A stretch of DNA of 64,000 nucleotides from Sphingomonas sp. S2-65 (GTDB taxonomy: Bacteria > Pseudomonadota > Alphaproteobacteria > Sphingomonadales > Sphingomonadaceae). This document shows, in pieces, positions 30,716 to 53,715 of the stretch. Under the pieces are notes generated by a model that saw nothing but the letters and a program-made list of their open reading frames with translations, was not told the origin of the DNA and did no database searches. The DNA lies in the NCBI RefSeq assembly GCF_021513175.1, contig NZ_CP090953.1:124001-188000 (forward strand). The letters are read 5' to 3'. Made by a program: the position numbers and the translations under genes. The stretch's first letter is position 1. Each line of letters opens with the position of its first letter.

Positions 30716-31507
30716 CTAGGCGGTTTCGAGCGTGGCGAGGACCCGGTCGAACAGCCAGTCCTTGTCGCCTTCGCCGGCGAAGCTGTGGCTGGCGGTGTCG
30801 TGCTGCGCGATCGGGATGGCGCGGCGTACCGCATCGAAGCGAGCGCCGCGATATTCGTGGAGGAAGGCCACCGCGGTATGATCGCCGGTGGCGATCAGCA
30901 GCGTGGTGGGCACCGCCCTTTGGAGCGCCCGCGCGGCGCGGGCGGCGAGGCTTTCATCCTGAGAGCGCGTGTTGGCAGTTGCTCGCAAGCCCTTGAATAG
31001 CTTCGCTAGGTTTACGCCACCTCTGAGCAGGCGCAGCCATTGCCGCGGGTCTCTCAGCCGGGCTGCGTAGTGCGCGCGGATCGCGGCGGGCGGGGGTAGA
31101 TCGCCTGCCGGCGGCACGAGCCATGGATTGGCGAGGACGAGCGCGTCGATCTCCGCGCGGTCGTGGAAGAGGATGAGCGCGGTGGCGGCATCGCAATTGC
31201 CGAACGCGACCAGCCGGTCGAGCCTGGCAGCCTTGCGGAAGGCGGCGGCGGCGTGGGCGATGTCGGAGCAGCTGCTTTCGAAGCCATGATTCTCGCCCTC
31301 GGAGTCGCCGATGCCGCGGCGGTCGAAGCGGAATATCGGATAGCCCGACATCGCCAGACGCTGGGCGAGGCGGGCCATGCCGCGATGCGCGCCCATGCGC
31401 AGCTCGTTGCCGCCCGAGACGATGAGCAGCCCGGTGCGGCCTGGAGCCTCGTCGAGTGTGCCCACCAGCGTCGCGCCTTCGCAGCGGAACGAGATCAGCC
31501 TTCGCAT
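30716..31507 (-). CDS. Exosortase A system-associated hydrolase 1 (Cys-nucleophile alpha/beta hydrolase)
   Basis: A 263-residue alpha/beta-fold hydrolase of the kind found only beside XrtA exopolysaccharide loci. The oxyanion region is VSGGNELRMGAHRG and the FDRRGIGDSEG stretch is typical. The nucleophile elbow reads GNCDAAT, placing Cys105 where most relatives have Ser, with late Asp (TGDHT) and His (ASHSFAGEGDKDWL) completing a Cys-Asp-His set. The reaction is unknown; thioester hydrolysis would fit the neighbouring carrier protein. Its start overlaps the 3' end of hydrolase 2 by 13 bases, so ACP, hydrolase 2 and hydrolase 1 form one leftward operon. Confidence 0.9.
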   Translation of the reverse strand: MRRLISFRCEGATLVGTLDEAPGRTGLLIVSGGNELRMGAHRGMARLAQRLAMSGYPIFRFDRRGIGDSEGENHGFESSCSDIAHAAAAFRKAARLDRLVAFGNCDAATALILFHDRAEIDALVLANPWLVPPAGDLPPPAAIRAHYAARLRDPRQWLRLLRGGVNLAKLFKGLRATANTRSQDESLAARAARALQRAVPTTLLIATGDHTAVAFLHEYRGARFDAVRRAIPIAQHDTASHSFAGEGDKDWLFDRVLATLETA

Positions 31508-32196
31508 GCGTGGATCCAGGCGGCGATGTCGTCGGCGAGGAGGGCGGCGAGCGCCGGATCGTGATCGGGCTCGGCGCGGCGCCAGAGAGGAGTCCCGGCG
31601 GCCTGCAGGTCTGCGGGGCGCGGATCGCTATCGTAGCGGATGGTGCGAAGCGGCGAGCCCGGCGCATCGGCATAGGGTTGGGCGAGTGCGAGGGCACTCA
31701 GCAGGTCGGACGACAGGCGATTGCCGGCGATCTCGGTCGAATTCTCGAGAGACCACCAATTACCCTGATCGGGAGTACCCGGTGCCAGCGCGATACGCTT
31801 GAGCTCGCGCATCAGGTCGGCGCCGGGCTGCGGCGAGAAGTGCCAGCGGCCCCGTACGGAGGCGTGCGCGTCGATCAGCGCGCCGCTGCGGATGCTCAGC
31901 GCATAACAGGAGCGTTCCTGGCGGCGCAGGGCGTCCACCGCGCCTTGATACGCCGCGTGCAGCTGGGGGAGGCCGACGGCCTTGATTTGCACGAGGCTCT
32001 CGCCGGTGCCGGGCAGGTCGGGCAGAGCGGAGGCGATGCCGCGTTCCGCCAGCAGCCGCATCAGCGCGACGGCGAAGGTGCGGGTGCGGTTCGCTTCCTC
32101 GAACAGGGGCAGCGCGACGACGACGACCGGTCCCGAGGCTGGGCCGAAGCGAAGCATCGCTTCGCGGCCGCCGGACCAGTCGTACCAGTCGATCAC
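31495..32196 (-). CDS. Exosortase A system-associated hydrolase 2 (degenerate alpha/beta hydrolase)
   Basis: A 233-residue alpha/beta-fold protein typical of XrtA loci. The first strand and oxyanion loop (VVVALPLFEEANRTRTF) and a DLPGTGES turn are present. At the elbow, where GxSxG is expected, the sequence is SIRSG with Arg103 in the nucleophile position, so ordinary hydrolase chemistry is unlikely. It may bind the product of the ligase/ACP pathway or scaffold hydrolase 1. It overlaps both neighbours (4 bases with the ACP gene, 13 with hydrolase 1). Confidence 0.85.
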   Translation of the reverse strand: MIDWYDWSGGREAMLRFGPASGPVVVVALPLFEEANRTRTFAVALMRLLAERGIASALPDLPGTGESLVQIKAVGLPQLHAAYQGAVDALRRQERSCYALSIRSGALIDAHASVRGRWHFSPQPGADLMRELKRIALAPGTPDQGNWWSLENSTEIAGNRLSSDLLSALALAQPYADAPGSPLRTIRYDSDPRPADLQAAGTPLWRRAEPDHDPALAALLADDIAAWIHACEG

Positions 32197-32471
32197 CTGA
32201 GCGCCTTGTCCGCGGCGAAGCGCGTCAGCGCGCCGAAACTTTCGAGCATGTCGCCATCGACTTCGTCATCCTCGATCAGGATGCCGAGCCGGTCCTCGAT
32301 CTCGGTGAGCACGCCGGCGACCGCGAGCGAATCGAGTTCGGGCAGCGCGCCGAACAGCGGCGTCGCTTCGTTGAACGCGGCGACCCGCTCCTCGCTGAGG
32401 CCCAGCACGTCGCGCAGGACCCCGCGCACCGTGTTCTCGACCTCGCCAAACCCTTCCCGCTGCAATGCCAT
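32193..32471 (-). CDS. Acyl carrier protein of the XrtA locus
   Basis: A 92-residue phosphopantetheine carrier. The attachment site is Ser48 in PELDSLAVAGV, and the flanking helices match the ACP fold. The ATG at 32471 follows AGGGG; the longer open frame upstream is dropped because it invades the ligase leader. It is transcribed away from the AMP ligase gene, whose start is 67 bases off, so the two arms probably share a regulatory region. It presumably accepts the acyl or aminoacyl group activated by that ligase. Confidence 0.88.
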   Translation of the reverse strand: MALQREGFGEVENTVRGVLRDVLGLSEERVAAFNEATPLFGALPELDSLAVAGVLTEIEDRLGILIEDDEVDGDMLESFGALTRFAADKALR

Positions 32472-32538
32472 TCCCCTGCGCGCTAATTTTCGGAGCCCTA
32501 AGGGTTGGCGGGTGCGCTGCCAAGGGTAAGGGTGGGGC

Positions 32539-34038
32539 ATGATCGCACTGGATCCCGTTCCCCGCCCGATCGACCATCTGCCGGCTCGGGGCGCGCCCGG
32601 CGCAGTCGCGCTCGAGGACCGCGCCGGTACGCTCGATTATGCCGGGCTGGAAGCGCAGGTCGGCAGCGTCGCGCATGCCTTGTCCCGCCTGGGACTGAAT
32701 GCGGGCGAGCGGGTCGCGACCTGGCTGCCCAAGACCCGCACGGCGTGCCTGATACCGTTGGCGGCGGCGCGAGCCGGGCTGGTGCATGTTCCGATCAACC
32801 CGGTGCTCAAGCGCAATCAGGTGGCCCACATCCTGGCCGATAGCGGTGCACGGACGCTGGTGACGCAGGCGGCCAGGCTCCCCGCGCTGGAGGCTGGCGA
32901 TGTGCCCGCCGGTTGCCGGATAATCACGGAGGACGAACTGGAGGGCGCCGACGCGCTGCCGCCCTCCGGAGCCGATCCGGCAGCGCTGGCGGCGATCCTC
33001 TATACGTCGGGATCGACGGGGCGTGCGAAGGGCGTGATGCTGAGCCACGCCAATTTATGGCTCGGCGCCATCAGCGTGGCGCACTATCTTGAGATTCAGT
33101 CTGAAGATCTCGTGCTCGGCGTGCTGCCGCTCAGCTTCGACTATGGGCAGAACCAGCTCTTCTCGACCTGGGCGGCGGGTGCCCGGGTGATCCCGCTCGA
33201 TTACCTGACAGCGCGCGATGTGGTGAAGGCAGTTGCGCGGTATGACGTCACCACCCTGGCAGGGGTGCCGCCTTTATGGGTGCAGCTGCTGGAGGCGGAG
33301 TGGCCCGTTGAGACTGCATCCAAGCTTCGCCGGTTAACCAATTCAGGTGGCGCGCTGACGCCGCGCCTGGTGCGCGGGCTGCGCGAGCGGTTCGGCGCGG
33401 CGCGGCTGTACCCGATGTACGGACTGACCGAGGCGTTTCGATCGACCTATCTTCCGCCGGCGCTGGTGGATGCCAACCCCGAATCGATCGGGCGGGCGAT
33501 CCCCTTTGCCGAGGTGCTGGTGGTTCGGGCCGATGGCAGGCGAGCCGCGGTGGGAGAGCCGGGCGAACTGGTCCATGCCGGGCCGTTGGTCGCCCAGGGA
33601 TATTGGCAGGATGCCGAGCGTACCGCGATGCGCTTTCGGCCCGCCCCGGACTTCGCGGAGAGCGGCGGCATTGCGGTGTGGTCGGGCGACACGGTTGTCG
33701 GAGGTGAGGATGGCCTGCTCCGCTTCGTCGGGCGCGACGACGAGATGATCAAATCGGCGGGCAACCGGATCAGCCCCACCGAAGTGGAGGAGGCCGTGCT
33801 TTCGGGCGGGGAGACCGCCGAGGCGGCGGCGTTCGGAATAGCCGATGAGAGGCTTGGCCAGGCGATCCTGGTGGTGGCGCGTGGCGACGGCAGCGGCGAG
33901 GCGGGCCTGCGCGAGCGGCTGCGGCGCGAGTTGCCGAGCTTCATGCAGCCGGCGCGCTATGTATGGCGGGACAGCCTGCCGCGGAACGCCAATGGCAAGC
34001 TCGACCGGTCGGCGCTGAAGGCGGAGATGACACGATGA
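32539..34038 (+). CDS. Acyl-CoA/ACP ligase (AMP-forming), exosortase A system-associated
   Basis: ANL-superfamily adenylating enzyme of 499 residues. The P-loop motif reads LYTSGSTGRAKGVMLSH, the A5-type motif YPMYGLTEAF, and the hinge/C-terminal motifs SGDTVVGGEDGLLRFVGRDDEMIKS (split here by position) and NANGKLDR with the catalytic Lys. It would activate a carboxylate and load it onto the ACP encoded divergently. The substrate is unknown. It heads the rightward XrtA operon, and its stop overlaps the decarboxylase start (ATGA). Confidence 0.93.
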   Translation: MIALDPVPRPIDHLPARGAPGAVALEDRAGTLDYAGLEAQVGSVAHALSRLGLNAGERVATWLPKTRTACLIPLAAARAGLVHVPINPVLKRNQVAHILADSGARTLVTQAARLPALEAGDVPAGCRIITEDELEGADALPPSGADPAALAAILYTSGSTGRAKGVMLSHANLWLGAISVAHYLEIQSEDLVLGVLPLSFDYGQNQLFSTWAAGARVIPLDYLTARDVVKAVARYDVTTLAGVPPLWVQLLEAEWPVETASKLRRLTNSGGALTPRLVRGLRERFGAARLYPMYGLTEAFRSTYLPPALVDANPESIGRAIPFAEVLVVRADGRRAAVGEPGELVHAGPLVAQGYWQDAERTAMRFRPAPDFAESGGIAVWSGDTVVGGEDGLLRFVGRDDEMIKSAGNRISPTEVEEAVLSGGETAEAAAFGIADERLGQAILVVARGDGSGEAGLRERLRRELPSFMQPARYVWRDSLPRNANGKLDRSALKAEMTR

Positions 34039-35252
34039 AGCCAGTGGGACCAATCCCGCCGGGATATGCCGCGCAGGATGTGCTGACAGTCGCCGGGCGA
34101 ACCGCCGCCGAATGGGCCGAGGAAGGAACGCCGCTATACCTGTACGACTTTGCCGTCGTGGCGGCGCGTGTGGCGGGACTGCGGACGCACCTGCCTGACG
34201 CGGTGAGCCTGCACTATGCCGTCAAGGCGAACCCGTATGAGCCGTTGGTGCGCGCGCTGGCCCCCCTCGTGGATGGGCTGGACGTGGCGTCGGCGGGCGA
34301 GCTGGCGCTGGCGTCGCGGCACAAGCCGGCCGCGGCGATCAGCTTTGCCGGGCCGGGCAAGCGCGACTTCGAACTGGAAGCGGCGATCCAGGCCGGCGCG
34401 ACGCTGAACCTGGAATCGGAAGGCGAAGCGGAGCGCGCACTCGCGGCCGGGCAGCGGCTGGGGGTCACGCCGCGGCTGGCGGTGCGAGTCAATCCGGACT
34501 TCGAACTGCGCGGATCGGGGATGCGGATGGGCGGGCGTGCCTCTCCCTTCGGTGTCGATGCCGCGCGCGTGCCGGCATTGGTGAAGCGACTGACCGCGGA
34601 GGGAGCGGACTGGCGCGGGTTCCACATCTTTGCGGGCTCGCAGTCGCTGGATACCGCGGCGATCATCGAGACGCAGGCGGCGACCGTCGCGCTGGCACGG
34701 CGGTTGCGCGACGAGGCCGGTGCCATGCCGCCACTGGTGAACATCGGCGGCGGCCTCGGTATCCCTTATTTCGCGGGGGACATGGCAGTCGACGTCGCGG
34801 CGGTGGGAGAGGCGCTGGGCGGCGTCATCGAGACATTCCCGGAGACGCGATTCGCCATCGAATTGGGCCGGTACCTGGTGGGCGAAGCCGGCATCTATCT
34901 GACGCGGGTGATCGACCGGAAGGAAAGCCAGAGCGAGACCTTCCTGGTCGTGGACGGAGGGCTGCACCAGCATCTTGCCGCCACTGGCAATTTCGGGATG
35001 GTCGTGCGGCGCAACTATCCGGTGGCGGTCGCGAGTCGCATGGCGAATGCCGGCGAAGAGACGGTGAGCGTGGTCGGGCCGCTGTGCACTCCGCTCGACC
35101 GACTGGCCGACAAGGTGGTGCTGCCGAGTGCGGGCGTGGGTGACGTCATCGCGATCTTCGCGTCCGGAGCCTATGGTGCTTCCGCCAGCCCCTCCGCGTT
35201 CCTGGGACATGCACCGGTTCGGGAAGTGCTTGCCGGTATCCCGCACACCTAA
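34035..35252 (+). CDS. PLP-dependent decarboxylase, exosortase A system-associated
   Basis: A 405-residue fold-III (DapDC/ornithine decarboxylase type) enzyme. Lys64 in HYAVKANPYE is the PLP Schiff-base residue. VNPDFELRGSGMRMGG, HIFAGSQ, NIGGGLGIPY and the C-terminal Cys motif GPLCTPLD are family features. It differs from lysA in substrate regions and belongs to the XrtA-linked subgroup. Together with the ligase and ACP it suggests decarboxylation of a free or carrier-bound amino acid. The start overlaps the ligase stop by 4 bases. Confidence 0.92.
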   Translation: MKPVGPIPPGYAAQDVLTVAGRTAAEWAEEGTPLYLYDFAVVAARVAGLRTHLPDAVSLHYAVKANPYEPLVRALAPLVDGLDVASAGELALASRHKPAAAISFAGPGKRDFELEAAIQAGATLNLESEGEAERALAAGQRLGVTPRLAVRVNPDFELRGSGMRMGGRASPFGVDAARVPALVKRLTAEGADWRGFHIFAGSQSLDTAAIIETQAATVALARRLRDEAGAMPPLVNIGGGLGIPYFAGDMAVDVAAVGEALGGVIETFPETRFAIELGRYLVGEAGIYLTRVIDRKESQSETFLVVDGGLHQHLAATGNFGMVVRRNYPVAVASRMANAGEETVSVVGPLCTPLDRLADKVVLPSAGVGDVIAIFASGAYGASASPSAFLGHAPVREVLAGIPHT

Positions 35253-35351: not shown

Positions 35352-35993
35352 ATGGGTTTGTATCGGTTTGGCAGGGTTGCGGTGGCGCTTGGCGTCACGG
35401 GGACGATCCTGTCGAGTTGCTCCAATGGAAGCCGGCCCGAGCTGCCGCCGGCGGCGTTCGTGGCGACGCGCGAGGTGCCGAGCGACGAATATGTGATCGG
35501 TCCGCTCGACCAGCTGAACGTCTTCGTGTGGCGCAATCCCGAGCTGTCGGCCAAGGTGCAGGTGCGTCCCGACGGTCGCATCACCACGCCGCTGATCAGC
35601 GACATGCCGGCAGTGGGCAAGACCCCGGCGATGCTGGCCGACGACATGAAGATCGCGCTGGGCGAGTTCATCAAGGATCCGATCGTATCGGTGATCGTCG
35701 AGAATTTCTCCGGCACCTATAGCCAGCAGATCCGCGTCGTCGGCGCGACCGAGAAGCCGGCGTCGATCCCGTATCGCGCCAACATGACGGTGCTCGACGC
35801 GATGATCGCGGTGGGTGGTTTGTCCGAGTTCGCGTCGGGCAACCGGTCGCGGCTGGTGCGCTATGACCGGCAGACCGGCAAGCAGCGCGAATATCGCGTC
35901 CGCCTGGGCGACCTGCTCAAGAATGGCGACGTGTCCGCCAATGTGAAGCTCGAGCCGGGTGACGTCGTGATCATCCCGCAGAGCATGTTCTAA
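35352..35993 (+). CDS. XrtA-system polysaccharide export lipoprotein (Wza-like)
   Basis: Outer-membrane export component of 213 residues. An N-terminal lipoprotein signal ends in ILSSC. The poly-export domain (YVIGPLDQLNVFVWRNPEL, RPDGRITTPLISDMPAVGKT) and one SLBB-like domain (RVVGATEKPASIPYRANMTVLDAMIAVGG, split across positions) follow. It is shorter than E. coli Wza, as usual for this family. It is preceded by a 99-base gap after the decarboxylase that could hold an internal promoter. Confidence 0.93.
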   Translation: MGLYRFGRVAVALGVTGTILSSCSNGSRPELPPAAFVATREVPSDEYVIGPLDQLNVFVWRNPELSAKVQVRPDGRITTPLISDMPAVGKTPAMLADDMKIALGEFIKDPIVSVIVENFSGTYSQQIRVVGATEKPASIPYRANMTVLDAMIAVGGLSEFASGNRSRLVRYDRQTGKQREYRVRLGDLLKNGDVSANVKLEPGDVVIIPQSMF

Positions 35994-36006
35994 GGACACT
36001 GGCGGC

Positions 36007-37521
36007 ATGGGCAGCCTGTACGACGAACTGCGCGCGGCGCTGCATGCCGTCTGGATGCGGCGCTGGATCGCGCTGGCGGTGGCCTGGGGGGTGTGCCTGC
36101 TGGGCTGGCTGGTCGTGTCGCAGATGCCCAACAGCTACGAATCGCGGGCGCGGATCTTCGTGCAGATGCGCCAGATCCTGCCGACCGACGGGGTCACCGT
36201 CGCGCAGCAGCAAAAGGACATCGACCGGGTGCGCCAGACGCTCACCTCGGCCGTGAACCTGGACAAGGTGGTACGCTCGACCGACCTGGCGCGCACCGTG
36301 TCGAGCGAGCGTGACATCGCCGACCGGGTGGCCGGGCTGCAGAAGGCGATCAAGCTGACCGCGCAACAGGACAACCTGTTCGAGATCACCGTCACCGCGG
36401 CGAGCGGTACGCTGGCCCGGCAGATCGCGCAGAAGCTGATCGACATCTTCGTCGAGGACAATCTTGCCGACAACCGCGACCAGTCCAGCCAGTCGCTCCA
36501 GTTCCTGGAAGCGCAGCTGGATGAGCGCCAGAAGCAGCTTCAGGACGCCGAGGCCAAGCGCGCCGATTTCCAGGCGCGGTATCTGGGCGCGCTGCCCGGT
36601 ACCGGGTCGCTGGACGATCGCGTGGGAGCGGCGCGCGCGCAGCTGGCCCAGATCCAGTCCGATCTGGCGGCGGCACAGAGCGGTTTAAACGCCGTGAACG
36701 GGCAGATGGCGGGTACGCCCGCCAACCTGCCGGGCGCGAGCGGGCAAGTGGTCGCCGGGCCGGCACGGGCGCGGCTGCAGGCGATCCAGGGACAGCTCGC
36801 CGATGCGCGCGCCAAGGGCTGGACCGACCAGCATCCCGACGTGATCGCGCTCAAGAGCCAGATGGCGTCGGCCCAGGCCGCGGCGCGCAGCGAGCCGGTG
36901 ACGAGCGGCGCGGCGGCGGGCACGTCGAATCCCTATTATCTGGGGCTCAAGTCGATGCAGGCCGACAAGGCTTCGCAGGTGGCGGCGCTGAACGAGCGGC
37001 GCAACCAGATCGAAAGCGACCTGGCGCAGCTCCAATCGAAGATGCAGCAGGACCCGGGCGTCGCCGCCGAGCAGGGCGAGATCGAGCGGCAATATCAGGT
37101 GCTGAAGGATCAGTATGAGAAGCTGCTGGCGAACCGCGAGCAAGTGAAGATCTCCAGCCAGGCGCAGAACATCAGCGACGCAGTCAAGTTCAACGTCGTC
37201 GATCCGCCGACTCAGCCGCGGGCGCCGACTTCGCCCAATCGCCCGCTGCTGCTGGCGGCAGTGCTGGTCGCCGGGCTGGGTGCGGGCGTGGCGGCGGCGT
37301 TCGCGCTGGCCAAGCTCCAGACGACGTTCCCGACGGCGTCGCGGCTGGAAAAGACCAGCGGGATGCCGGTGATCGGATCGATCGGCGAAGTGCTGACGTC
37401 CGCGCAGATCGCGTTGCGGCGCAAGCGGCTGGCGCTGTTCGCCGGCGGGTTCGCGGCGCTGATGGTGGCGTTCGTCGGGCTGGTCGGCGTCGAATTCCTC
37501 CAGCGCGGCATGGGGGCCTGA
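36007..37521 (+). CDS. XrtA-system polysaccharide chain-length determinant (Wzz-like)
   Basis: A 504-residue inner-membrane co-polymerase. The first membrane helix is at about residues 19-38 and is followed by a Wzz domain and a long coiled-coil periplasmic region rich in Gln, Ala and Asp. Further helices at about 416-438 and 477-500 bring the chain back to the cytoplasm. PTQPRAPTSPNRPLL just before the second helix is the proline-rich motif of this group. It sets polymer length together with the kinase encoded next. Confidence 0.94.
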   Translation: MGSLYDELRAALHAVWMRRWIALAVAWGVCLLGWLVVSQMPNSYESRARIFVQMRQILPTDGVTVAQQQKDIDRVRQTLTSAVNLDKVVRSTDLARTVSSERDIADRVAGLQKAIKLTAQQDNLFEITVTAASGTLARQIAQKLIDIFVEDNLADNRDQSSQSLQFLEAQLDERQKQLQDAEAKRADFQARYLGALPGTGSLDDRVGAARAQLAQIQSDLAAAQSGLNAVNGQMAGTPANLPGASGQVVAGPARARLQAIQGQLADARAKGWTDQHPDVIALKSQMASAQAAARSEPVTSGAAAGTSNPYYLGLKSMQADKASQVAALNERRNQIESDLAQLQSKMQQDPGVAAEQGEIERQYQVLKDQYEKLLANREQVKISSQAQNISDAVKFNVVDPPTQPRAPTSPNRPLLLAAVLVAGLGAGVAAAFALAKLQTTFPTASRLEKTSGMPVIGSIGEVLTSAQIALRRKRLALFAGGFAALMVAFVGLVGVEFLQRGMGA

Positions 37522-37525
37522 GCGC

Positions 37526-38611
37526 ATGAACGACCATAGTCCCCGCCGGCTTCGCGGATCGCTGCTGGAGCGTGCCGCCGGGCAGTTCCATTATGCCGAC
37601 GCGCCGAGGCTGCCGGTCGAGCCGCTGCCGCCGCTCCGCGCCGCCGAGCCGCTGCCGGCTGCGCCGATGTTCGTGCCGGAGCCGATAGCGGCCCCGGAGC
37701 CCGCATTTGTGCCCGAGCCCGCGTTCGTGCCGGAGGCGGTGTTCGTGGCGGAGCCGGTGTTCGTGGCGCCTGTCGCGGTCGAGGATGTCGTCGCCGCGCC
37801 GGCCGAGTCCGAGCCGGTTGAAGAACTGGAACTCGGCGACGCTTTCCTCGCGCCCGAGCCGGAGGCGCAGTCGGGAGTCATCGACCGCGCGTTGCTGCGC
37901 GAGGGCGGGATGATCGTGCCGGGTGCGCCGATCACGCCGCTGGCCGAGGAATTCCGGATGGTGAAGCGCCAGCTGCTCACCACCGCGCGCGCCGTGGCGA
38001 ACCAGGGCACTGCCCAGGCGGGCGACCGCGCGCGGATGATCCTGGTGTGCTCGGCGCATCCCGACGAAGGCAAGACGTTCTGCGCGATCAACCTGGCGCT
38101 TTCGATGGCGGCCGAGAAGGACATGGAGATCCTGCTGGTCGACGCCGATTTCGCCAAGCCGGACATCCTGGAGCGGCTGGGGTTGCCGGGCGGTCCCGGG
38201 TTGCTCGACGTGCTGGGGGGAAGCGTCGCCGATGCCGAGGCGTGCATCATCAGGACCGACGTGCCGCAGCTTTCCGTGCTGCCGGCGGGGACGCGGACCA
38301 ACGCCGACACCGAGTTGCTGGCGAGCGACCGGGCGCGGGCGATCCTGGACGGGCTCGCCTCGGCCAATCCGCGCCGCATCGTGATCTTCGATTCGCCGCC
38401 GGCGCTGGCGGCGTCGCCGGCCTCGGTGCTGGCCTTCCATGTTGGGCAGGCGATGCTGGTGGTGCGCGCCGACAAGACCACCGAAGGCGATTTGCGCGAG
38501 GCGGTGACCACGCTCGACGCGTGCGAGCATATCCAGCTGATCCTGAACGCAGTCTCCTTCCAGCCCGGCGGACGCCGGTTCGGAAGCTATTATGGGGAAA
38601 CGGCGCAATGA
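37526..38611 (+). CDS. XrtA-system tyrosine-kinase-like ATPase (CpsD/CapB type)
   Basis: A 361-residue cytoplasmic bacterial tyrosine kinase partner of the Wzz protein. The N-terminal 120 residues are low complexity, with repeated PEP and FVPEP units, and are probably disordered. The ATPase core has Walker A SAHPDEGKTF, Walker A' ILLVDADFAKPD and Walker B IVIFDSPPAL. The C-terminal end has only a short Tyr pair (GSYYGE) in place of a long Tyr cluster. It follows the Wzz gene by 4 bases, and its stop overlaps the barrel-protein start. Confidence 0.92.
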   Translation: MNDHSPRRLRGSLLERAAGQFHYADAPRLPVEPLPPLRAAEPLPAAPMFVPEPIAAPEPAFVPEPAFVPEAVFVAEPVFVAPVAVEDVVAAPAESEPVEELELGDAFLAPEPEAQSGVIDRALLREGGMIVPGAPITPLAEEFRMVKRQLLTTARAVANQGTAQAGDRARMILVCSAHPDEGKTFCAINLALSMAAEKDMEILLVDADFAKPDILERLGLPGGPGLLDVLGGSVADAEACIIRTDVPQLSVLPAGTRTNADTELLASDRARAILDGLASANPRRIVIFDSPPALAASPASVLAFHVGQAMLVVRADKTTEGDLREAVTTLDACEHIQLILNAVSFQPGGRRFGSYYGETAQ

Positions 38612-40200
38612 GCCGGCAGCTGATCCTGATCGCGCTTGCCGCATCCGCGGCGGCGCAGCCGGCCTGGGCGCAGCGCGCGCGGATCTCGCCCTATATCGAG
38701 GCGAGCCAGGTGCTCGCCGCCGATCTGGGCGATGGCGGCGATGTGCTGACCTATTCGACGCTGGGCGCCGGGTTCGATGCGTCGGTCGAGTCGCGCCGGG
38801 TGCAGGTGCAGGTCAGCTACCAATATGAGCGGCGCTTCGACTATGACGAGCCGCTGGCCGATAACGACATGCACAGCGGGCTGGCGCGGGCTAATGTCGT
38901 GGTGGCGCCCGGCGTCACGCTGGAGGGCGGGGCGATCGCGACCCGTACGCGCTCCGACATCCGCGGCGACGCACTGAACACGACGCAGGGCAATGTCCGC
39001 AACGTCAGCCAGGTGTTCTCGGCCTATGCCGGGCCGAGCGTGGCCACGCATATCGGCCCGGCCTTCGCCAACGCCGCGTACCGCTTCGGCTACACCAAGG
39101 TCGAGGAGCCATACGGTACCGGCGTTCCGGCCGGGGAGGCGCCGCTCGACCGCTATGACGATTCGACGGTGCATGTCGCCACCGCAAGCGTCGGGGTGAA
39201 GTCGGGCACGGTGCTGCCGGTCGGGGTCACCGTCAGCGGATCGTACACGCGCGAGGATGCCGGGCAGCTCGACCAGCGGTTCGAGGGCAAATACGGCCGC
39301 GGCGACGTCGTCCTGCCGGTGGCGCGCGGCGTCGCGCTTACCGCGGGCGTCGGCTATGAGCAGATCGAGATCAGCCAGCGCGACGCGCTGCGCAACGCCG
39401 CCGGCCAGCCGGTGCGCGATCGCGCGGGACGCTTCGTGACCGATCCAGGTTCGCCGCGGCGGATAGCCTATGACCTGGACGGGGTGTTCTGGGACGCCGG
39501 GGTGATCTGGCGCCCGAGCCGGCGCACCAATTTGGAGGCGCGGTTCGGCCGGCGGTACAATTCGGACACCTATACCGGATCGTTCAGCTATCAGATGGGC
39601 GCCAGCAGCGGCATCCAGATCGGCGTGTATGACAATGTCCAGACGTTCGGCCAGCAGCTGAACGGCACGCTGTCGCGGCTGCCGACCAGCTTCGTCACCA
39701 CCACCGATCCTTTCGGCAACCAGTTCAGCGGCTGCATCTATGGCACCACCGGTGCCGCGGCGGGCGGATGCCTGAACGACGTGTTCGCCTCCGCCGTGAC
39801 GTCGGCCTATCGCTCGCGCGGCGTGACCGGCGTGGCGGTGCTGAACCGGGGCGGGACCAGCATCGGGCTGGGGGGTGGCTATTCGCGGCGCACCTTCCTG
39901 GCGCCCGAGGATGGCGGCAGCGCGCTGCTCGACGGATCGTTCGATGAGAGCTTCTATGCCCAGCTGTTCGGATCGAGCGATGTCGGGGCGAACGGCCAGG
40001 TGAGCACCAGCCTGCTCGCCAGCTACTATAATAGCAGCCTGGGCGAGGACGGCATCTTCGGCTGGGGCGCGAACGCGGCTTACACCCACAATTTCGGAAG
40101 GCTCGGTGCGACGGCGTCGCTCGGCCTCTTCGGCTACGAACGGGACGGCGACTCCAGCGCTTCGGCGCAGGCGCTGCTGGCCCTGCGGTACGGCTTCTAA
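38608..40200 (+). CDS. XrtA/PEP-CTERM system-associated outer-membrane beta-barrel protein
   Basis: A 530-residue exported protein. A signal peptide spans residues 1-22 (ends PAWAQ). The rest is made of alternating amphipathic strands (for example YRFGYTKVEEPY, VTVSGSYTRED, TNLEARFGRRYNS) and ends in aromatic LLALRYGF, the terminal barrel strand recognised by the Bam machinery. It likely forms the outer-membrane secretin-like pore or surface anchor for the polymer. The start ATG overlaps the kinase stop. A long antisense open frame here is a GC-skew artefact. Confidence 0.88.
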   Translation: MSRQLILIALAASAAAQPAWAQRARISPYIEASQVLAADLGDGGDVLTYSTLGAGFDASVESRRVQVQVSYQYERRFDYDEPLADNDMHSGLARANVVVAPGVTLEGGAIATRTRSDIRGDALNTTQGNVRNVSQVFSAYAGPSVATHIGPAFANAAYRFGYTKVEEPYGTGVPAGEAPLDRYDDSTVHVATASVGVKSGTVLPVGVTVSGSYTREDAGQLDQRFEGKYGRGDVVLPVARGVALTAGVGYEQIEISQRDALRNAAGQPVRDRAGRFVTDPGSPRRIAYDLDGVFWDAGVIWRPSRRTNLEARFGRRYNSDTYTGSFSYQMGASSGIQIGVYDNVQTFGQQLNGTLSRLPTSFVTTTDPFGNQFSGCIYGTTGAAAGGCLNDVFASAVTSAYRSRGVTGVAVLNRGGTSIGLGGGYSRRTFLAPEDGGSALLDGSFDESFYAQLFGSSDVGANGQVSTSLLASYYNSSLGEDGIFGWGANAAYTHNFGRLGATASLGLFGYERDGDSSASAQALLALRYGF

Positions 40201-40212
40201 GATCGGGATGAG

Positions 40213-41334
40213 ATGATGTACGACGATCATTATGGATTGAGCGGGCGGCCGTTCCAGCTGACGCCGGATCCCGACTTCTGGTTCGACACCGCGACGCACC
40301 GCAAGGCGATGGCGTATCTGGGCTATGGCCTGAGCCAGGGCGAGGGGTTCGTGGTCATCACCGGCGAGCCGGGCGCGGGCAAGACCACGCTGATGGGCCA
40401 CCTGCTCGCCGAGATCGACCGCGAGCGGCTGAACGTCCTGAAGCTGGTGTCGACCCAGATCGCGGCGGACGACCTGCTGCGCATGGTCTGCGGCGGCCTG
40501 GAGATCGACAGCGTTGGGCTGAGCAAGGCCGAGATGCTGTCGTCGATCGAGCGCGGGCTGCACACCGTCGCGCGGTCGGGCCGGCGCACGCTGCTGATCG
40601 TCGACGAGGCGCAGGCGCTGCCGATCGACAGCCTGGAGGAGCTGCGCATGCTCTCCAACTTCCAGGCGGGCGGCTATCCGCTGCTGCAGATCTTTCTGCT
40701 CGGCCAGCCCGAGTTCCGCCATACGCTTGCCGACCAGCGGCTGGATCAGCTGCGCCAGCGCGTGATCGCGATGCACCATCTGGCGCCGATGGACGGCGAC
40801 GAGGTCGAGCCCTACCTGATCCACCGCCTGTCGCGCGTGGGCTGGCGGGGCAAGCCGCGCTTCACCAACGATGCAATCGCGGCGATGCACCGCTGGTCGG
40901 GCGGCATTCCGCGCCGGCTGAACCAGCTGGCGAGCCGTGTGATGCTGTTCGGCGCGATCGAGCGCATCGACACCTTCAGCGGGCATGACGTCGCGGCGGT
41001 GATCGCCGACCTGGACAGCGACACCGCGCCGTTGCGTTCGGTGTCGCCGCGCGGGTTCGAAGATCGCTTTCCAGAGCGCGAGGCGAAGCCGGTCGCTGTC
41101 GACCTGCCGCGCGCTGCGCCCGAGCCGGCACCCACGCCGACGCCCGCAGCCGAGCGGCTGGACCGCCGCATCGGCGACGCGGCCCTGAACCGCAGGATCG
41201 GCGAGCTCGAGCAGCAGCTACAGCAGCAGGATGCGGCGCTGCGCCGCGTGCTGACGCTGCTGGTGGACTGGGTCGAGACCGGCACTGCGCCGAGCCGCCC
41301 GGATCTGGCATCGCTGCACGGCACCGCCGCCTGA
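40213..41334 (+). CDS. XrtA-system ATPase (ExeA-like AAA)
   Basis: A 373-residue AAA ATPase of the ExeA/general-secretion type. It begins YDDHYGLSGRPFQLTPDPDF, with Walker A GEPGAGKTT and Walker B LLIVDEAQALP. The C-terminal third is a Pro/Ala linker and a short coiled coil (IGELEQQLQQQDAALRR). It probably energises assembly of the export complex. GGGATGAG precedes two adjacent ATG codons; the first is used. Confidence 0.93.
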   Translation: MMYDDHYGLSGRPFQLTPDPDFWFDTATHRKAMAYLGYGLSQGEGFVVITGEPGAGKTTLMGHLLAEIDRERLNVLKLVSTQIAADDLLRMVCGGLEIDSVGLSKAEMLSSIERGLHTVARSGRRTLLIVDEAQALPIDSLEELRMLSNFQAGGYPLLQIFLLGQPEFRHTLADQRLDQLRQRVIAMHHLAPMDGDEVEPYLIHRLSRVGWRGKPRFTNDAIAAMHRWSGGIPRRLNQLASRVMLFGAIERIDTFSGHDVAAVIADLDSDTAPLRSVSPRGFEDRFPEREAKPVAVDLPRAAPEPAPTPTPAAERLDRRIGDAALNRRIGELEQQLQQQDAALRRVLTLLVDWVETGTAPSRPDLASLHGTAA

Positions 41335-41338
41335 CATC

Positions 41339-42181
41339 ATGATCACCAACGCCCTTTCGGTCGACGTCGAGGACTGGTTCCAGGTCGGCGCGTTCGAGAC
41401 CGTGATCGATCGGGCCGATTGGGAAGGGCTGGACCGCCGCGTGGAGGCGAACACCGACCGGGTGCTCGACCTGTTCGCGGTTGGAGGCGTGACGGCGACC
41501 TTCTTCACGCTGGGCTGGGTCGCGCATCGCCACCCGGCGCTGATCCGCCGCATCGCCGACGCCGGGCACGAAGTCGCGAGTCATGGCTGGGATCATGCCC
41601 GGGTGTTCACCATGGATGCGGACGCGTTTCGGGCTGATCTGGCGCGGGCGAAGAAAGCGCTGGAGGATGCGAGCGGGACAGCCGTGACCGGCTATCGCGC
41701 GCCCAGCTTTTCAATCGATGGCCGAACACCCTGGGCGCATGCGGTGCTTGCCGAGCAGGGATACCGCTATTCCTCCAGCATCGCGCCGCTGCGGCATGAC
41801 CATTACGGCGTCCCCGACGCGCCGCGCGGGACGTATCGCCCGATGCCGGACGCCGACCTGATCGAGATGCCGATCACCATTGCCACCGTGTTGGGCCGCG
41901 AAGTGACCGCCGGGGGCGGCTTCTTCCGCCTGCTGCCGAGCGCGGTGACCGAGCGGGCGATCCGCGCCGCCAATGCCGGTAGCGCACCCGCGATATTCTA
42001 TTTTCATCCCTGGGAAGTTGATCCAGGGCAGCCCCGCGTTCGGAATGCACCACTCAAGTCGAAGCTGCGGCATTATGCGCGGCTCGGCGCGATGGCCGGC
42101 AAGCTGGAGAAGCTGATCGCGAGGCACCGCTGGGGGCGGATGGACGCGATCGCAGCGCGTGAAGCGGCGCGGCTGGCGTGA
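41339..42181 (+). CDS. XrtA-system polysaccharide deacetylase
   Basis: A 280-residue NodB-homology deacetylase that would remove acetyl groups from the polymer. Metal and catalytic motifs: LSVDVEDWFQ (Asp-Asp), ASHGWDHARV (His-x3-His), and GYRAPSFSID. The C-terminal IFYFHPWEVDPGQPR segment is typical of the PEP-CTERM-linked subgroup. No signal peptide is visible, also usual for the group. Its stop overlaps the next gene's GTG. Confidence 0.94.
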   Translation: MITNALSVDVEDWFQVGAFETVIDRADWEGLDRRVEANTDRVLDLFAVGGVTATFFTLGWVAHRHPALIRRIADAGHEVASHGWDHARVFTMDADAFRADLARAKKALEDASGTAVTGYRAPSFSIDGRTPWAHAVLAEQGYRYSSSIAPLRHDHYGVPDAPRGTYRPMPDADLIEMPITIATVLGREVTAGGGFFRLLPSAVTERAIRAANAGSAPAIFYFHPWEVDPGQPRVRNAPLKSKLRHYARLGAMAGKLEKLIARHRWGRMDAIAAREAARLA

Positions 42182-43251
42182 ATGCGCCGACGTTCCCGCA
42201 TGCCCTGACGCTGCGCACCGCCGATCTGGACGATGCCGGCCCGTGCGCGCGGATCGCGGCGTGGGTCGGCGACCATCCCGACGGCACGCCGTTTCACTTG
42301 CCCCAATGGAGCAGCGCGGTGGCGCGTGGCTGCGGGCAGCGGAGCCATTATCTGCTGGCCGAGCGGCCGGGCGGCGAGATCGCCGGGGTGCTGCCACTGA
42401 CCGAGTCGCACTCGCCGCTGTTCGGACGCGCGCTGGTGTCGGCAGGGTTCGGCGTCGGCGGAGGCGTGTTGGCGGATGGTGCGGTGGCGACCGCGAAGCT
42501 GGCGGGGGCAGCGTTCGAATTGGCGGGGCGGCTAACTTGCTCCACCGTCGAGTTGCGCGGTGGGGTAAGGCCGGGGACGGAATGGCATGCCGATGACGCC
42601 ACTTATGTGCGCTTTGTCCGTCCCCTTGCGGGGGACGACGAGGCGGAACTGCTGGCGATCCCGCGCAAGCAGCGGGCGGAGGTCCGACGGTCGCTGAGCA
42701 ATGCCCTGACCGTGGAGACGGGGAGCGGCGTCGCGCAAGCCGCGGCACATTATGCGGTCTATGCCGAGTCGGTGCGCAACCTCGGAACGCCGGTGTTTCC
42801 GCGCCGGCTTTTCGAGGCGACGCTGAGGGCGTTCGGCGATGCTGCCGACCTGTTGGTCGTCCGGCACGAGGGCGCGCCGGTCGCGAGCGTGCTGAGCCTG
42901 TATTGGAATGGCACCGTCTATCCATATTGGGGCGGGGGCACCGAGGCGGCGCGCGGGTTGCGGGCCAACGACCGGATGTACTTCGCGCTGATGGCGCATG
43001 CACGGGGGCGGGGGTGTACCCGGTTCGATTTCGGACGCTCCAAGGCGGGTACGGGGGCTGCGGCGTTCAAGAAGAACTGGGGGTTCGAGCCCGCGCCGCT
43101 CACTTATTTCAAGCGGACGACCGACGGGTCCACACCGCGCAGCATCAATCCGCTCGATCCCAAATATAGCCTGCAGGTGCGCGCGTGGAAGCGGATGCCG
43201 CTGTGGCTGGCCAACCGCGTAGGGCCCTGGATCTCCCGGGGGCTTGGCTGA
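42178..43251 (+). CDS. XrtA-system FemAB-like acyltransferase
   Basis: A 357-residue protein with two GNAT-like halves in the FemAB fold. IPRKQRAEVRRSL, then FPRRLFEATLRAFG and the C-terminal FDFGRSKAGTGAAAFKKNWG match the PEP-CTERM-linked FemAB group. By analogy it transfers an aminoacyl or acyl group onto an amine, perhaps on the polymer; the donor is unknown. The GTG start overlaps the deacetylase stop by 4 bases. Confidence 0.9.
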   Translation: MNAPTFPHALTLRTADLDDAGPCARIAAWVGDHPDGTPFHLPQWSSAVARGCGQRSHYLLAERPGGEIAGVLPLTESHSPLFGRALVSAGFGVGGGVLADGAVATAKLAGAAFELAGRLTCSTVELRGGVRPGTEWHADDATYVRFVRPLAGDDEAELLAIPRKQRAEVRRSLSNALTVETGSGVAQAAAHYAVYAESVRNLGTPVFPRRLFEATLRAFGDAADLLVVRHEGAPVASVLSLYWNGTVYPYWGGGTEAARGLRANDRMYFALMAHARGRGCTRFDFGRSKAGTGAAAFKKNWGFEPAPLTYFKRTTDGSTPRSINPLDPKYSLQVRAWKRMPLWLANRVGPWISRGLG

Positions 43252-44453
43252 TGATGGGGGACATCCTGTTCCTGGCGCACCGCGTGCCCTATCCTCCGGA
43301 TCGCGGCGACAAGATCCGCGCCTTCCACCTGCTCAAGCATCTTGCCGAGCGTCACCGCGTGCATCTGGTCGCCTTTGCCGATGGTCCCGGTGATACCGAG
43401 CACGAGGCGGCGCTGGCGCGGTTCGCCTGTACGCAGAGCGTGATCCGGCGGTCGAAGCCCCAGGCGGTCGCAGCGGCGCAGGCGCTGCTGTCGGGAAAGC
43501 CGGTGTCGCTGACCGCCTTCGCGGATGCTGAAATGCGTGCCGCGGTGGACCGAGTGCTTGCGCGCGAAGCGATCGATGCCGTGTTCGTGTTTTCCGGGCA
43601 AATGGCACAATATCTGCCGGCCGCCGGACCGCCGGTGGTGATGGATTTTGTCGACATGGATTCGGCCAAGTTCGCCGGCTATGCCGCGACGGCGCGAGGC
43701 CCGATGCGCTGGATGCTCGCCCGCGAGGCGCGGTTGTTGATGGCGCACGAGGCGCAGGTCGCGGGCCGGGCGCATGCCAGCCTGTTCGTCAGTGCCGCGG
43801 AGGCGCGGCTGTTCGAGGAAGAGACCGGCGCCGCGCGCGTGGCGGTCGTGGAGAACGGGATCGAAACCGGCTATTTCGCGCCCGGCGCCCAGTTCGTCCG
43901 GCCCAGCCTGAGCGCGGCATCGATCGTGTTCACCGGGCAGATGGACTACCGCCCCAACGTCGAAGGCGTGGCGTGGTTTGTCAAGGCGGTGCTGCCGCGG
44001 ATCCGTGCCGAGCGGGGCGATGCCGAGTTCGTGATCGTCGGGCGCAATCCCGGTGATGCGGTGCGTGGGCTGGGCAAGCGCGACGGAGTGCGGGTGACCG
44101 GCGAGGTTGCCGATGTGCGCGGCTGGTTGGCGGACGCGGCCGTCGTCGTGGCGCCGCTGCTGCTGGCGCGGGGCATCCAGAACAAGGTGCTCGAGGGGAT
44201 GGCGATGGCGCGGCCGGTGGTCGCCTCCGCAGCTGCGGCCGAAGGGATCGATCACCGAGGCACGATCGACGTGACGGCGGATGGCGAGGCGATGGCGGCA
44301 GCGATCCTGGAGCGGCTGCGTGACCCTGCGGGTGCGGCGGCGCTTGGCGACCAGGCACGCCGGCAGGTGATCGAGCGCTATGGCTGGCCCACGGCGATGG
44401 CGACACTGGACGACATACTGGCGCCGCTGTTCGACGTGCGGAGGGCTGCATGA
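43251..44453 (+). CDS. XrtA-system glycosyltransferase (GT4-type)
   Basis: A 400-residue retaining-type glycosyltransferase with two Rossmann domains. N-terminal FLAHRVPYPPDRGDKIRAFH, linker VVENGIETGYFAPG, and C-terminal donor-binding region LLARGIQNKVLEGMAMARPVV with the conserved Glu. It is the only glycosyltransferase of the locus inside this window. The start overlaps the FemAB stop in TGATG; a second Met follows immediately. Confidence 0.94.
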   Translation: MMGDILFLAHRVPYPPDRGDKIRAFHLLKHLAERHRVHLVAFADGPGDTEHEAALARFACTQSVIRRSKPQAVAAAQALLSGKPVSLTAFADAEMRAAVDRVLAREAIDAVFVFSGQMAQYLPAAGPPVVMDFVDMDSAKFAGYAATARGPMRWMLAREARLLMAHEAQVAGRAHASLFVSAAEARLFEEETGAARVAVVENGIETGYFAPGAQFVRPSLSAASIVFTGQMDYRPNVEGVAWFVKAVLPRIRAERGDAEFVIVGRNPGDAVRGLGKRDGVRVTGEVADVRGWLADAAVVVAPLLLARGIQNKVLEGMAMARPVVASAAAAEGIDHRGTIDVTADGEAMAAAILERLRDPAGAAALGDQARRQVIERYGWPTAMATLDDILAPLFDVRRAA

Positions 44454-51127: not shown

Positions 51128-52207
51128 TTACCTGAACAGCTTGGCCCAACCACGCTTGGCGCGGTCCTTCCAGTGGCCGCGGTGATAGGCGTCCGATGCC
51201 AGCAGCGGCATCACGCTGCCCGCTTCGGCGAACACCATCTGCTCGATGCCGGTGTTGACCTTGCCCCAGCTCGCAGCTTCCTGCAGCGTCGAGGACGAGC
51301 AGGCGCCGTCGCGCACGTCGGCGACGGTGATCTGTACCGCGTACTTGTGCACTGCGACGTCCTCATGGCCCAGGATCTCGGCGCAGACGACCGTGTCCTG
51401 GATGAAGTTCTTCGGCACGCCGCCGCCGATCATCAGCAGGCCGGTGGTGCCCGCCTCGATCTTGATCTGCGTGAGCTCGCGGAAGTCCGCGACTGCGTCG
51501 ATCATCAGATACGGACGGCCTTCCTTTGCCGCGTCGACCTGGTGCTTGACCAGCCCGAAGCCGGCCGAGCTGTCGACGAAGGCCGGGCAGAAGATCGGCA
51601 CGTCATGCTCGTAAGCGAGCTTGACGAGGCTGTTCTCCTTCTTGCCGTGCTCGACGAGATACTTGCCCATCTCGCGGATGAACGCACGGCTCGAATAGGC
51701 CTTGGGCTCCAGCGATTCCGCAATCTCGAAGATCGTGTGGTCGACGTTCTGGAGCGCTTCCTCGTCGATATAGGTGTCGTAGATCCGGTCGATGTAGAGC
51801 GAGCGCAGCGTGTCGTCGTCGGGGATTTCCAGCGCCTGATAGTGCTTGTGGCCGAGCCCTTCGAAGAAATCCATGTCGACAATGGTCGCGCCGGTGGCGA
51901 CGATGCAGTCGACCATGTTGTTGCGCACCAGCTCGGCATAGAGGTCCATGCAGCCGCCGGCCGACGTCGAGCCTGCGATCACCAGGCAGACGGTGCAGTC
52001 GGGATCGGCCAGCATCTGGTTGTAGATGCCGGTGGCGCGGCCGAGGTCACGGCTGGTGAAGCTCATGTCCGACATCGCATCGATGATCGGGCGCGCGTCG
52101 AACGACTTGATGTCGACGTGCTTCACTTCCTTCGACAGCAGCTCTGCCTTGCGGGTGTCGTTGATCGGGCCGTTTGCCGCGGCGGTCTTGGTGAGGGTGT
52201 CGGTCAT
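51128..52207 (-). CDS. Deoxyhypusine synthase-like polyamine enzyme
   Basis: A 359-residue NAD-dependent aminobutyl-transferase of the deoxyhypusine synthase family. The Rossmann-like core is recognisable (AGSTSAGGCMDLYAEL, MIGGGVPKNFIQ). The catalytic-Lys motif EAASWGK (Lys316) matches the eukaryotic EAVSWGK. Bacteria lack eIF5A, and relatives in bacteria make homospermidine or a bis-guanidino relative instead; which one is formed here cannot be read from sequence. It lies downstream of the ornithine decarboxylase on the same strand, so the two probably form a polyamine unit. Confidence 0.88.
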   Translation of the reverse strand: MTDTLTKTAAANGPINDTRKAELLSKEVKHVDIKSFDARPIIDAMSDMSFTSRDLGRATGIYNQMLADPDCTVCLVIAGSTSAGGCMDLYAELVRNNMVDCIVATGATIVDMDFFEGLGHKHYQALEIPDDDTLRSLYIDRIYDTYIDEEALQNVDHTIFEIAESLEPKAYSSRAFIREMGKYLVEHGKKENSLVKLAYEHDVPIFCPAFVDSSAGFGLVKHQVDAAKEGRPYLMIDAVADFRELTQIKIEAGTTGLLMIGGGVPKNFIQDTVVCAEILGHEDVAVHKYAVQITVADVRDGACSSSTLQEAASWGKVNTGIEQMVFAEAGSVMPLLASDAYHRGHWKDRAKRGWAKLFR

Positions 52208-53563: not shown

Positions 53564-53715
53564 TTCAAGGGACCTCCAAATGCCTTGCGGCAAACATTGA
53601 CGAAACAGCTGCCTTGCGGTTGGAAGTCCCATGGGGCAGCGGAAGGCGGCATTTAGGGGCGAGGTCCCCGCATGTAAAGCGATTCGGACTGCGATTTGTC
53701 CGACGGGGGTGAGAT

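What the first reader, a model, noticed from the sequence alone, without database searches (positions are those of the whole stretch)
30716..35252. Carrier-protein amino-acid decarboxylation module inside an exosortase A locus
The locus holds an ACP (Ser48), an AMP-forming ligase, a fold-III PLP decarboxylase (Lys64) and two hydrolases, one with a Cys nucleophile. Known parallel: in butirosin biosynthesis a ligase loads glutamate on an ACP and a fold-III PLP enzyme decarboxylates it on the carrier. Inference: this module makes an amine-bearing acyl-ACP that the FemAB-like and amidotransferase enzymes of the same locus attach to the exopolysaccharide or to sorted proteins. I know of no described product for it.
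Basis: partly seen in the sequence, partly recalled or inferred. Interest (0 to 1): 0.78.

Follow-up and report, generated by a model that had tools for sequence, protein, structure and literature searches.

The report
Carrier-bound beta-alanine maker, possible PanD substitute
Five neighbouring genes in a polysaccharide and protein-sorting locus look like an assembly that strips carbon dioxide from aspartate while it is tied to a carrier protein, and genome comparisons suggest it may be how many sphingomonads make beta-alanine, the coenzyme A building block for which they lack the usual enzyme.

Summary
The genes are real. Ligase, decarboxylase and hydrolase 1 pass NCBI's exosortase-A-associated cut-offs; the carrier protein passes Pfam's; hydrolase 2 matches its family weakly. 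The decarboxylase is far closer to BtrK, which acts on glutamyl-carrier protein, than to lysine-pathway enzymes. The ligase keeps the pocket of VinN, its best single-domain solved relative. Known parallel: FlvN/FlvL/FlvO, aspartate to beta-alanyl-carrier. Hydrolase 1 has a Cys-Asp-His triad; 'hydrolase 2' has Arg instead of a nucleophile in every copy examined. Ligase, carrier and decarboxylase recur without exosortase, for instance in a Sinorhizobium surface-polysaccharide locus.

New: among 237 Sphingomonadales genomes, all 21 with PanD (the usual beta-alanine enzyme) lack the module, and 0 of 181 with the module have PanD. All 19 module genomes of a phylum-wide sample lack PanD but have PanC, which needs beta-alanine. 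Best reading: the module makes beta-alanyl-carrier from aspartate; sphingomonads release beta-alanine from it for coenzyme A, with surface-polymer decoration an alternative or second fate. Substrate, release and fate are inferred; 35 genomes lack both, and the exclusivity rests on about three independent contrasts. Attachment to sorted proteins has no support here.

The parts
30716..31507 (-). hydrolase 1: alpha/beta hydrolase with Cys105, Asp209, His241; proposed thioesterase (or acyltransferase) acting on the loaded ACP
   Evidence: TIGR03100 over cut-off; Cys in 17 of 17 and 62 of 64 rows, Asp and His in 64 of 64; model pLDDT 91, esterase/thioesterase fold
31495..32196 (-). 'hydrolase 2': alpha/beta-hydrolase fold with Arg103 at the nucleophile place; proposed non-catalytic partner of hydrolase 1
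   Evidence: Arg in 15 of 15 and 64 of 64 rows; model pLDDT 93.5, hydrolase fold; fused to hydrolase 1 in genome G126; weak TIGR03101 match
32193..32471 (-). ACP, 92 aa, carrier Ser48 (open frame extends to 32540)
   Evidence: Pfam PP-binding over cut-off; Ser48; one PPTase found in the genome
32472..32538 (.). 67-bp gap between the divergent ACP and ligase genes
   Evidence: coordinates; depends on the ACP start at 32471
32539..34038 (+). AMP-forming ligase; predicted amino-dicarboxylate pocket Asp201, Tyr202, Ser269, Arg301
   Evidence: TIGR03098 over cut-off; alignment with VinN
34035..35252 (+). fold-III PLP decarboxylase, Lys64, C351-T352
   Evidence: TIGR03099 over cut-off; BtrK best solved relative; tree and column check
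35352..47874 (+). XrtA/PEP-CTERM polysaccharide locus (export, chain length, kinase, outer-membrane-like protein, ATPase, deacetylase, FemAB, glycosyltransferase, XrtA, amidotransferase): context, not part of the module proper
   Evidence: NCBIfam

Best explanation
The ligase adenylates the side-chain carboxyl of L-aspartate and loads it on the ACP; the PLP enzyme removes the alpha-carboxyl on the carrier, giving beta-alanyl-S-ACP. In Sphingomonadales the Cys hydrolase, with its Arg pseudo-hydrolase partner, releases beta-alanine, which PanC uses for pantothenate and coenzyme A, so that the module takes the place of PanD. The beta-alanyl group may also be passed to surface polysaccharide; that is probably its only use in rhizobia, where the loci seen have no hydrolases. 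Shown: gene identities, motifs, relatedness, co-occurrence, the PanD pattern. Inferred: substrate, product, release, fate.
For: Decarboxylase: BtrK 246 bits, next relative (a LysA) 135; C-T motif in all 45 rows of the BtrK side of a tree, C-E in all 9 rows of the LysA side. Ligase: VinN-type pocket and short loop. Precedent: FlvN loads Asp on FlvL, FlvO gives beta-alanyl-FlvL (PMC10951976 passages). PanD: 0 of 19 module genomes in the phylum sample against 164 of 299 overall, with PanC in 19 of 19; Sphingomonadales: PanD in 21 of 237, all 21 module-lacking, 0 of 181 module genomes; within one genus 3 of 3 module-lacking genomes have PanD against 0 of 16. PMC7142369 Table A2 (passages): of 19 Sphingomonadales rows ADC in 0, PYD3 in 2, GAD in 0, PanC in 18. 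Hydrolase 1 triad conserved.
Against: 35 of 237 Sphingomonadales have neither module nor PanD. 17 of the 21 PanD genomes are one family, so about three independent contrasts; Fisher values ignore relatedness. Six genomes of family f30 lack module and PanD but have PanC, so other sources exist. The tie to exosortase A (17 of 19) is not explained by coenzyme A supply. Six of 64 sphingomonad loci and G107 have no hydrolase genes nearby, and those searched still lack PanD. Three betaproteobacteria-like ligases have Ala instead of the aromatic pocket residue; another ligase of this genome (L180) also has the Arg. No experiment.
Confidence: 0.48

Rival explanations
1. Same carrier chemistry, but the aminoacyl group is made only to decorate exopolysaccharide through a FemAB/GNAT-like or other acyltransferase; hydrolase 1 is an editing thioesterase or the transferase itself. 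PanD absence is a lineage coincidence.
For: Place in a polysaccharide locus and co-occurrence with XrtA (17 of 19); Sinorhizobium and Aureimonas trios among glycosyltransferases and a deacetylase; FemAB-like gene beside the ACP in 26 of 64 loci and joined to it in one open frame in two; MBOAT, acetyltransferase-family and deacetylase neighbours in other trios.
Against: Does not explain why the PanD genomes of the order all lack the module. The joined frames each have an internal ATG preceded by GGAG, so they may not be obligate fusions.
Confidence: 0.32
2. The carrier mechanism is right but the acid is not aspartate: glutamate (GABA-ACP, as BtrK), 3-methylaspartate or a larger amino dicarboxylate.
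For: BtrK itself uses glutamyl-ACP (PMC7857480 passages); VinN uses 3-methylaspartate; the pocket residue next to Asp is Tyr in 26, Ala in 3, Phe in 1 of 30.
Against: The VinN loop fits an acid whose carboxyl is beta to the amino group (review); the PanD pattern points to beta-alanine.
Confidence: 0.16
3. The decarboxylase is an ordinary diaminopimelate or ornithine/lysine decarboxylase that happens to sit here.
For: Same fold and PLP lysine; 208 bits against the LysA model.
Against: Below the LysA cut-off of 298; C-T instead of C-E; the genome has two LysA over cut-off; ligase and decarboxylase co-occur in 18 of 19 genomes at cut-off level.
Confidence: 0.04

Closest known systems
FlvN/FlvL/FlvO (fluvirucin) and VinN/VinL/VinO (vicenistatin) beta-amino-acyl starter modules
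   Same: AMP-forming ligase loads an amino dicarboxylate on a stand-alone ACP and a PLP enzyme decarboxylates it there; the window ligase shares VinN's pocket residues and loop
   Different: Antibiotic pathways of actinomycetes that pass the unit to a polyketide synthase; no hydrolase pair, no exosortase locus. VinO and FlvO sequences were not at hand for comparison
BtrI/BtrJ/BtrK (butirosin)
   Same: BtrK decarboxylates glutamyl-ACP and is the best solved relative of the window decarboxylase
   Different: BtrJ is an ATP-grasp ligase (recalled); product goes to an aminoglycoside
PanD, aspartate 1-decarboxylase (PF02261)
   Same: Proposed overall result, aspartate to beta-alanine
   Different: Unrelated pyruvoyl enzyme acting on free aspartate; never found together with the exosortase-type module in the 19 + 181 genomes checked (13 genomes are in both samples)
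TIGR03098/03099/03100/03101, exosortase A system-associated families
   Same: Window ligase, decarboxylase and hydrolase 1 are members by cut-off
   Different: The families carry no function; hydrolase 2 falls below the TIGR03101 cut-off
Dlt D-alanylation system
   Same: AMP-forming ligase plus small carrier; one related trio (L062) lies beside an MBOAT protein; that DltB is an MBOAT is recalled
   Different: No decarboxylase in Dlt; no MBOAT in the window module

Membership tests
TIGR03098 / TIGR03099 / TIGR03100 exosortase A-associated families | Score over the curated cut-off | tested here: met
   629 against 592, 521 against 478, 216 against 168 bits
TIGR03101 hydrolase 2 | Score over the curated cut-off | tested here: not met
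   25.5 against 203 bits; same position and fold as its relatives
Active alpha/beta hydrolase (hydrolase 2) | Ser, Cys or Asp nucleophile in the elbow | tested here: not met
   Arg in 15 of 15 and 64 of 64 rows
VinN/FlvN-type amino-dicarboxylate ligase | Asp for the amino group, bulky neighbour, Ser, Arg in a shortened loop | tested here: met
   Asp201, Tyr202, Ser269, Arg301, ungapped against VinN; Phe300 stands where VinN has Lys330
VinN/FlvN-type amino-dicarboxylate ligase | Loads aspartate or methylaspartate on its ACP | not testable with these tools
   bench test proposed
BtrK/VinO-type carrier-dependent decarboxylase | Closer to BtrK than to LysA | tested here: met
   246 against 135 bits; tree branch 97/91; BtrK's own place on that side is open, and the side also holds enzymes beside siderophore and lyase/aminotransferase genes
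BtrK/VinO-type carrier-dependent decarboxylase | Acts only on ACP-bound substrate | not testable with these tools
   ACP gene present in all 64 long sphingomonad loci, in two of them joined to the FemAB-like gene
PanD-replacing beta-alanine pathway | Mutually exclusive with PanD while PanC is kept | tested here: inconclusive
   0 of 181 against 21 of 56 in the order; PanC 19 of 19 in the phylum sample, not tested in the order; about three independent contrasts; 35 genomes have neither
PanD-replacing beta-alanine pathway | Mutant needs beta-alanine or pantothenate; module rescues an E. coli panD mutant | not testable with these tools
   bench test proposed

The most novel reading that the evidence does not exclude
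A carrier-protein-dependent route to beta-alanine, built on the logic of antibiotic starter units, has displaced PanD in most Sphingomonadales and some other proteobacteria. It would explain how bacteria without PanD and without the uracil route make coenzyme A, give the orphan exosortase A-associated families a primary-metabolic function, and mean that a carrier protein, itself bearing a coenzyme A-derived arm, helps to make coenzyme A.
Probability: 0.42. Interest if true: 0.87.

Novelty: new variant of a known kind. Interest (0 to 1): 0.72.

Why it matters
The exosortase-associated ligase, decarboxylase and hydrolase families are named without a function, and PMC7142369 (table passages) shows that the listed sphingomonads have PanC but no PanD and, in 17 of 19 rows, no PYD3. 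One testable idea would close both gaps. If only the polymer fate is right, it would still be a way to put a primary amine on bacterial polysaccharide, shared by exosortase bacteria and Sinorhizobium, for which my searches of the held papers found no description.

Tried and rejected
Rejected: LysA/ODC function; 'two hydrolases' (the second has Arg in the elbow); exosortase as a requirement (G107 has no exosortase match; none annotated around the Sinorhizobium and Aureimonas trios, where the gene tables are incomplete). A pattern search gave off-site motif hits for L062 and L163; the column check replaces it.

Led nowhere: paper search for the family names (no paper); exosortase with carrier protein and decarboxylase or ligase (one paper each, seen only as listings); aminoacyl/polysaccharide search (two papers, listings only). 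The 2006 exosortase paper PMC1569441 (abstract and a term search) does not hold decarboxylase, ligase, carrier protein, hydrolase or FemAB. The floc paper PMC9850573 (passages) has no decarboxylase or carrier protein. PanC was not found near the module in loci L034-L158; it lies beside PanD in L186. The 281-295-aa gene before the ligase in Sinorhizobium, Aureimonas and G107 matches no Pfam family; I did not fold it because its sources are not on the folding tool's list.
Full report
Observation. NCBIfam names three over their cut-offs: hydrolase 1 (TIGR03100), ligase (TIGR03098), decarboxylase (TIGR03099); hydrolase 2 is a weak match to TIGR03101 and the ACP has only a Pfam match. Downstream runs an XrtA/PEP-CTERM polysaccharide locus with XrtA, FemAB, deacetylase and amidotransferase. 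ACP Ser48 (start at 32471), decarboxylase Lys64 and hydrolase 1 Cys105 are confirmed.

Co-occurrence. In 299 genomes drawn from the phylum the decarboxylase passes its cut-off in 19, the ligase in 18, XrtA in 20. All 18 ligase genomes are among the 19; the nineteenth (G126) has a ligase at 549 bits, below the cut-off of 592, beside its decarboxylase. In G102 the ligase is far from the decarboxylase. Seventeen of the 19 have XrtA over cut-off; G107 has no exosortase match and G155 only a weak one. Three XrtA genomes (G007, G015, G267) lack the module. Of 80 further loci, sphingomonads by title save one named only Alphaproteobacteria, 64 are at least 20 kb long; all 64 have ligase and decarboxylase, 62 a separate ACP and the other two an ACP joined to a FemAB-like gene, 58 both hydrolases, 46 XrtA within reach, and 26 a FemAB-like gene (PF13480) beside the ACP. 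The six loci without hydrolase 1 are the same six without hydrolase 2. Some of these loci come from genomes that are also in the phylum sample.

Decarboxylase. BtrK is the best solved relative at 246 bits; the next, a LysA, has 135. On a tree of 55 rows a branch of support 97/91 holds BtrK, the window enzyme and its relatives (45 rows), apart from a LysA group of 9 rows at 100/99; all 45 have C-T at the window's positions 351-352, all 9 have C-E, and the window's ODC-like protein has C-D. That the LysA Glu binds diaminopimelate is recalled. BtrK sits on a long branch whose place inside its side is open, and that side also holds enzymes beside a siderophore synthetase and beside a lyase and aminotransferase, so it is not proof of carrier dependence. 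The genome has two LysA over cut-off. Two relatives (L064, L065) are fused to acyl-CoA-dehydrogenase domains.

Ligase. VinN (3wv4/3wvn) is the best relative over the substrate-binding part and the best single-domain-length entry overall; by whole-sequence score the two-domain LgrA and one other large synthetase rank above it. A review (PMC11253843, passages) gives VinN's rules: Asp for the amino group, a bulky residue next to it, Ser299, and Lys330/Arg331 in a loop one residue short. The window has Asp201, Tyr202, Ser269, Phe300, Arg301, ungapped against VinN. Of 37 ligase rows from the module and its relatives, window included, 30 have the Arg; of these 30 have the Asp, 27 an aromatic neighbour (3 have Ala), 29 Ser or Thr. 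The 7 others share only the Asp. By a motif scan one other AMP-binding gene of this genome (L180) also has the Arg. This fits an amino dicarboxylic acid activated at the carboxyl beta to the amino group, as aspartate by FlvN, whose ACP FlvL and decarboxylase FlvO then give beta-alanyl-ACP (PMC10951976 passages; PMC11284099 section 5).

Hydrolases. Hydrolase 1 has Cys in 17 of 17 rows of a broad set and 62 of 64 of a sphingomonad set (Gly in 2), with Asp and His in all 64. Hydrolase 2 has Arg at the nucleophile place in 15 of 15 and 64 of 64 rows, yet its model (pLDDT 93.5) has the ordinary hydrolase fold. In G126 the two are one 613-aa open frame, Arg half first, Cys half second, so they probably act together. 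I read hydrolase 1 as thioesterase or transferase and hydrolase 2 as its non-catalytic partner; this is inference.

Other settings. An ACP of one family (c13) lies within a few genes of a TIGR03099-like decarboxylase in 8 non-exosortase-type loci (L052, L054, L055, L058, L059, L062, L063, L066), in seven with a ligase close by and in L058 with one about 6 kb away. Neighbours include an MBOAT protein (L062), an aminoglycoside-N-acetyltransferase-family protein (L055) and a PIG-L deacetylase (L054). L061, L064 and L065 have several ligases and small ACPs and resemble vicenistatin-type sets, by recall. On plasmids 33 records hold the decarboxylase at E below 1e-60, 27 of them Sinorhizobium. I opened four: in S. 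meliloti Ak57 and Aureimonas AU20 the trio lies among glycosyltransferases, a polysaccharide deacetylase and an O-antigen ligase, with no exosortase or hydrolase 1/2 annotated in the stretch; the Sphingomonas one is the full exosortase locus; the Rhizobium T136 one has no listed genes. The rhizobial enzymes nest inside the exosortase-type clade. Two sphingomonads (L144, L135) have one open frame of FemAB-like domain plus ACP; each has an internal ATG preceded by GGAG, so a free ACP may also be made.

PanD. Because the prediction is beta-alanine, I asked whether these genomes have PanD. None of the 19 module genomes of the phylum sample does, while 164 of 299 do overall; all 19 have PanC. In 237 Sphingomonadales genomes at least 90% complete, 181 have the module decarboxylase (E at most 1e-80; 178 over cut-off) and 56 do not; PanD is in 21, all among the 56 (for 36 of the 56 the absence follows from their not being in the full list of positives). 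Fisher's test gives 2e-15 for the order, 4e-5 within the window's family (0 of 161 against 4 of 15) and 0.001 within one genus (0 of 16 against 3 of 3); none is corrected for relatedness, and 17 of the 21 are one family. No module or locus gene of the window was found in the six PanD stretches fetched; in L186 PanC lies beside PanD. A published table (PMC7142369, passages) lists 19 Sphingomonadales: ADC in 0, PYD3 in 2, GAD in 0, PanC in 18; two of these strains (N. capsulatum NBRC 12533, S. paucimobilis NBRC 13935) carry the module here (L132, L136). That paper shows the uracil route for Rhizobium etli and lists aminomutase and transaminase genes, present in many of these rows, as further candidates. 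That Zymomonas needs pantothenate is recalled, from no call.

Against. The link to exosortase A is strong and is not explained by coenzyme A supply alone. Six genomes of family f30 lack both PanD and the module yet have PanC. Thirty-five Sphingomonadales lack both module and PanD. G107 and G155 have the trio without hydrolases nearby, as do the six loci above (L145 is G155's). Of 15 genomes with a next-tier decarboxylase (348-456 bits) five have PanD (G149, G022, G185, G010, G130), so the exclusivity is seen only for the exosortase-type module, most of which has the hydrolases. That contrast fits release by hydrolase 1 but was not planned as a test.

Verdict.

Noticed in passing
window 51128-52207 and 52322-53632: A homospermidine/deoxyhypusine-synthase-like gene (over the cut-off of '1,9-bis(guanidino)-5-aza-nonane synthase') beside a second fold-III decarboxylase that is under every cut-off and very distant from the module's: a likely polyamine pair.
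   Followed up: no
L068, L070, L071 (genomes of family f28): A separate C-T-type decarboxylase group at about 270-300 bits to TIGR03099 lies beside an aminotransferase (PF00155) and an argininosuccinate-lyase-like gene (annotated in L071), with no ligase or ACP found nearby: possibly an undescribed amino-acid or amine pathway.
   Followed up: partly
L064:8160-10598 and L065:9305-11788: Decarboxylase fused to acyl-CoA-dehydrogenase domains within a set of several ligases and small ACPs, in two families of the window's class.
   Followed up: partly
L062:4340-6851: Ligase, ACP and decarboxylase beside an MBOAT protein, a 47-aa ORF and a 374-aa protein that looks SGNH-like by eye: reminiscent of the Dlt system.
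   Followed up: partly
L155:11499-12386, L156:9479-10348, L037:6912-7754: A conserved 281-295-aa protein of no Pfam family directly before the ligase in the rhizobial loci; its start looks GNAT-like by eye, a candidate transferase.
   Followed up: partly
L073:9219-12288: A C-T-type decarboxylase directly beside an IucA/IucC siderophore synthetase, like the citryl-amino-acid decarboxylases described in PMC7857480 (passages).
   Followed up: no
L090, L112, L126, L138, L139, L145, L154 and others of L075-L154: Where hydrolase 1 is missing from a long sphingomonad locus, hydrolase 2 is missing too (six of 64: L112, L126, L138, L139, L145, L154), which again suggests that the pair works as a unit.
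   Followed up: partly
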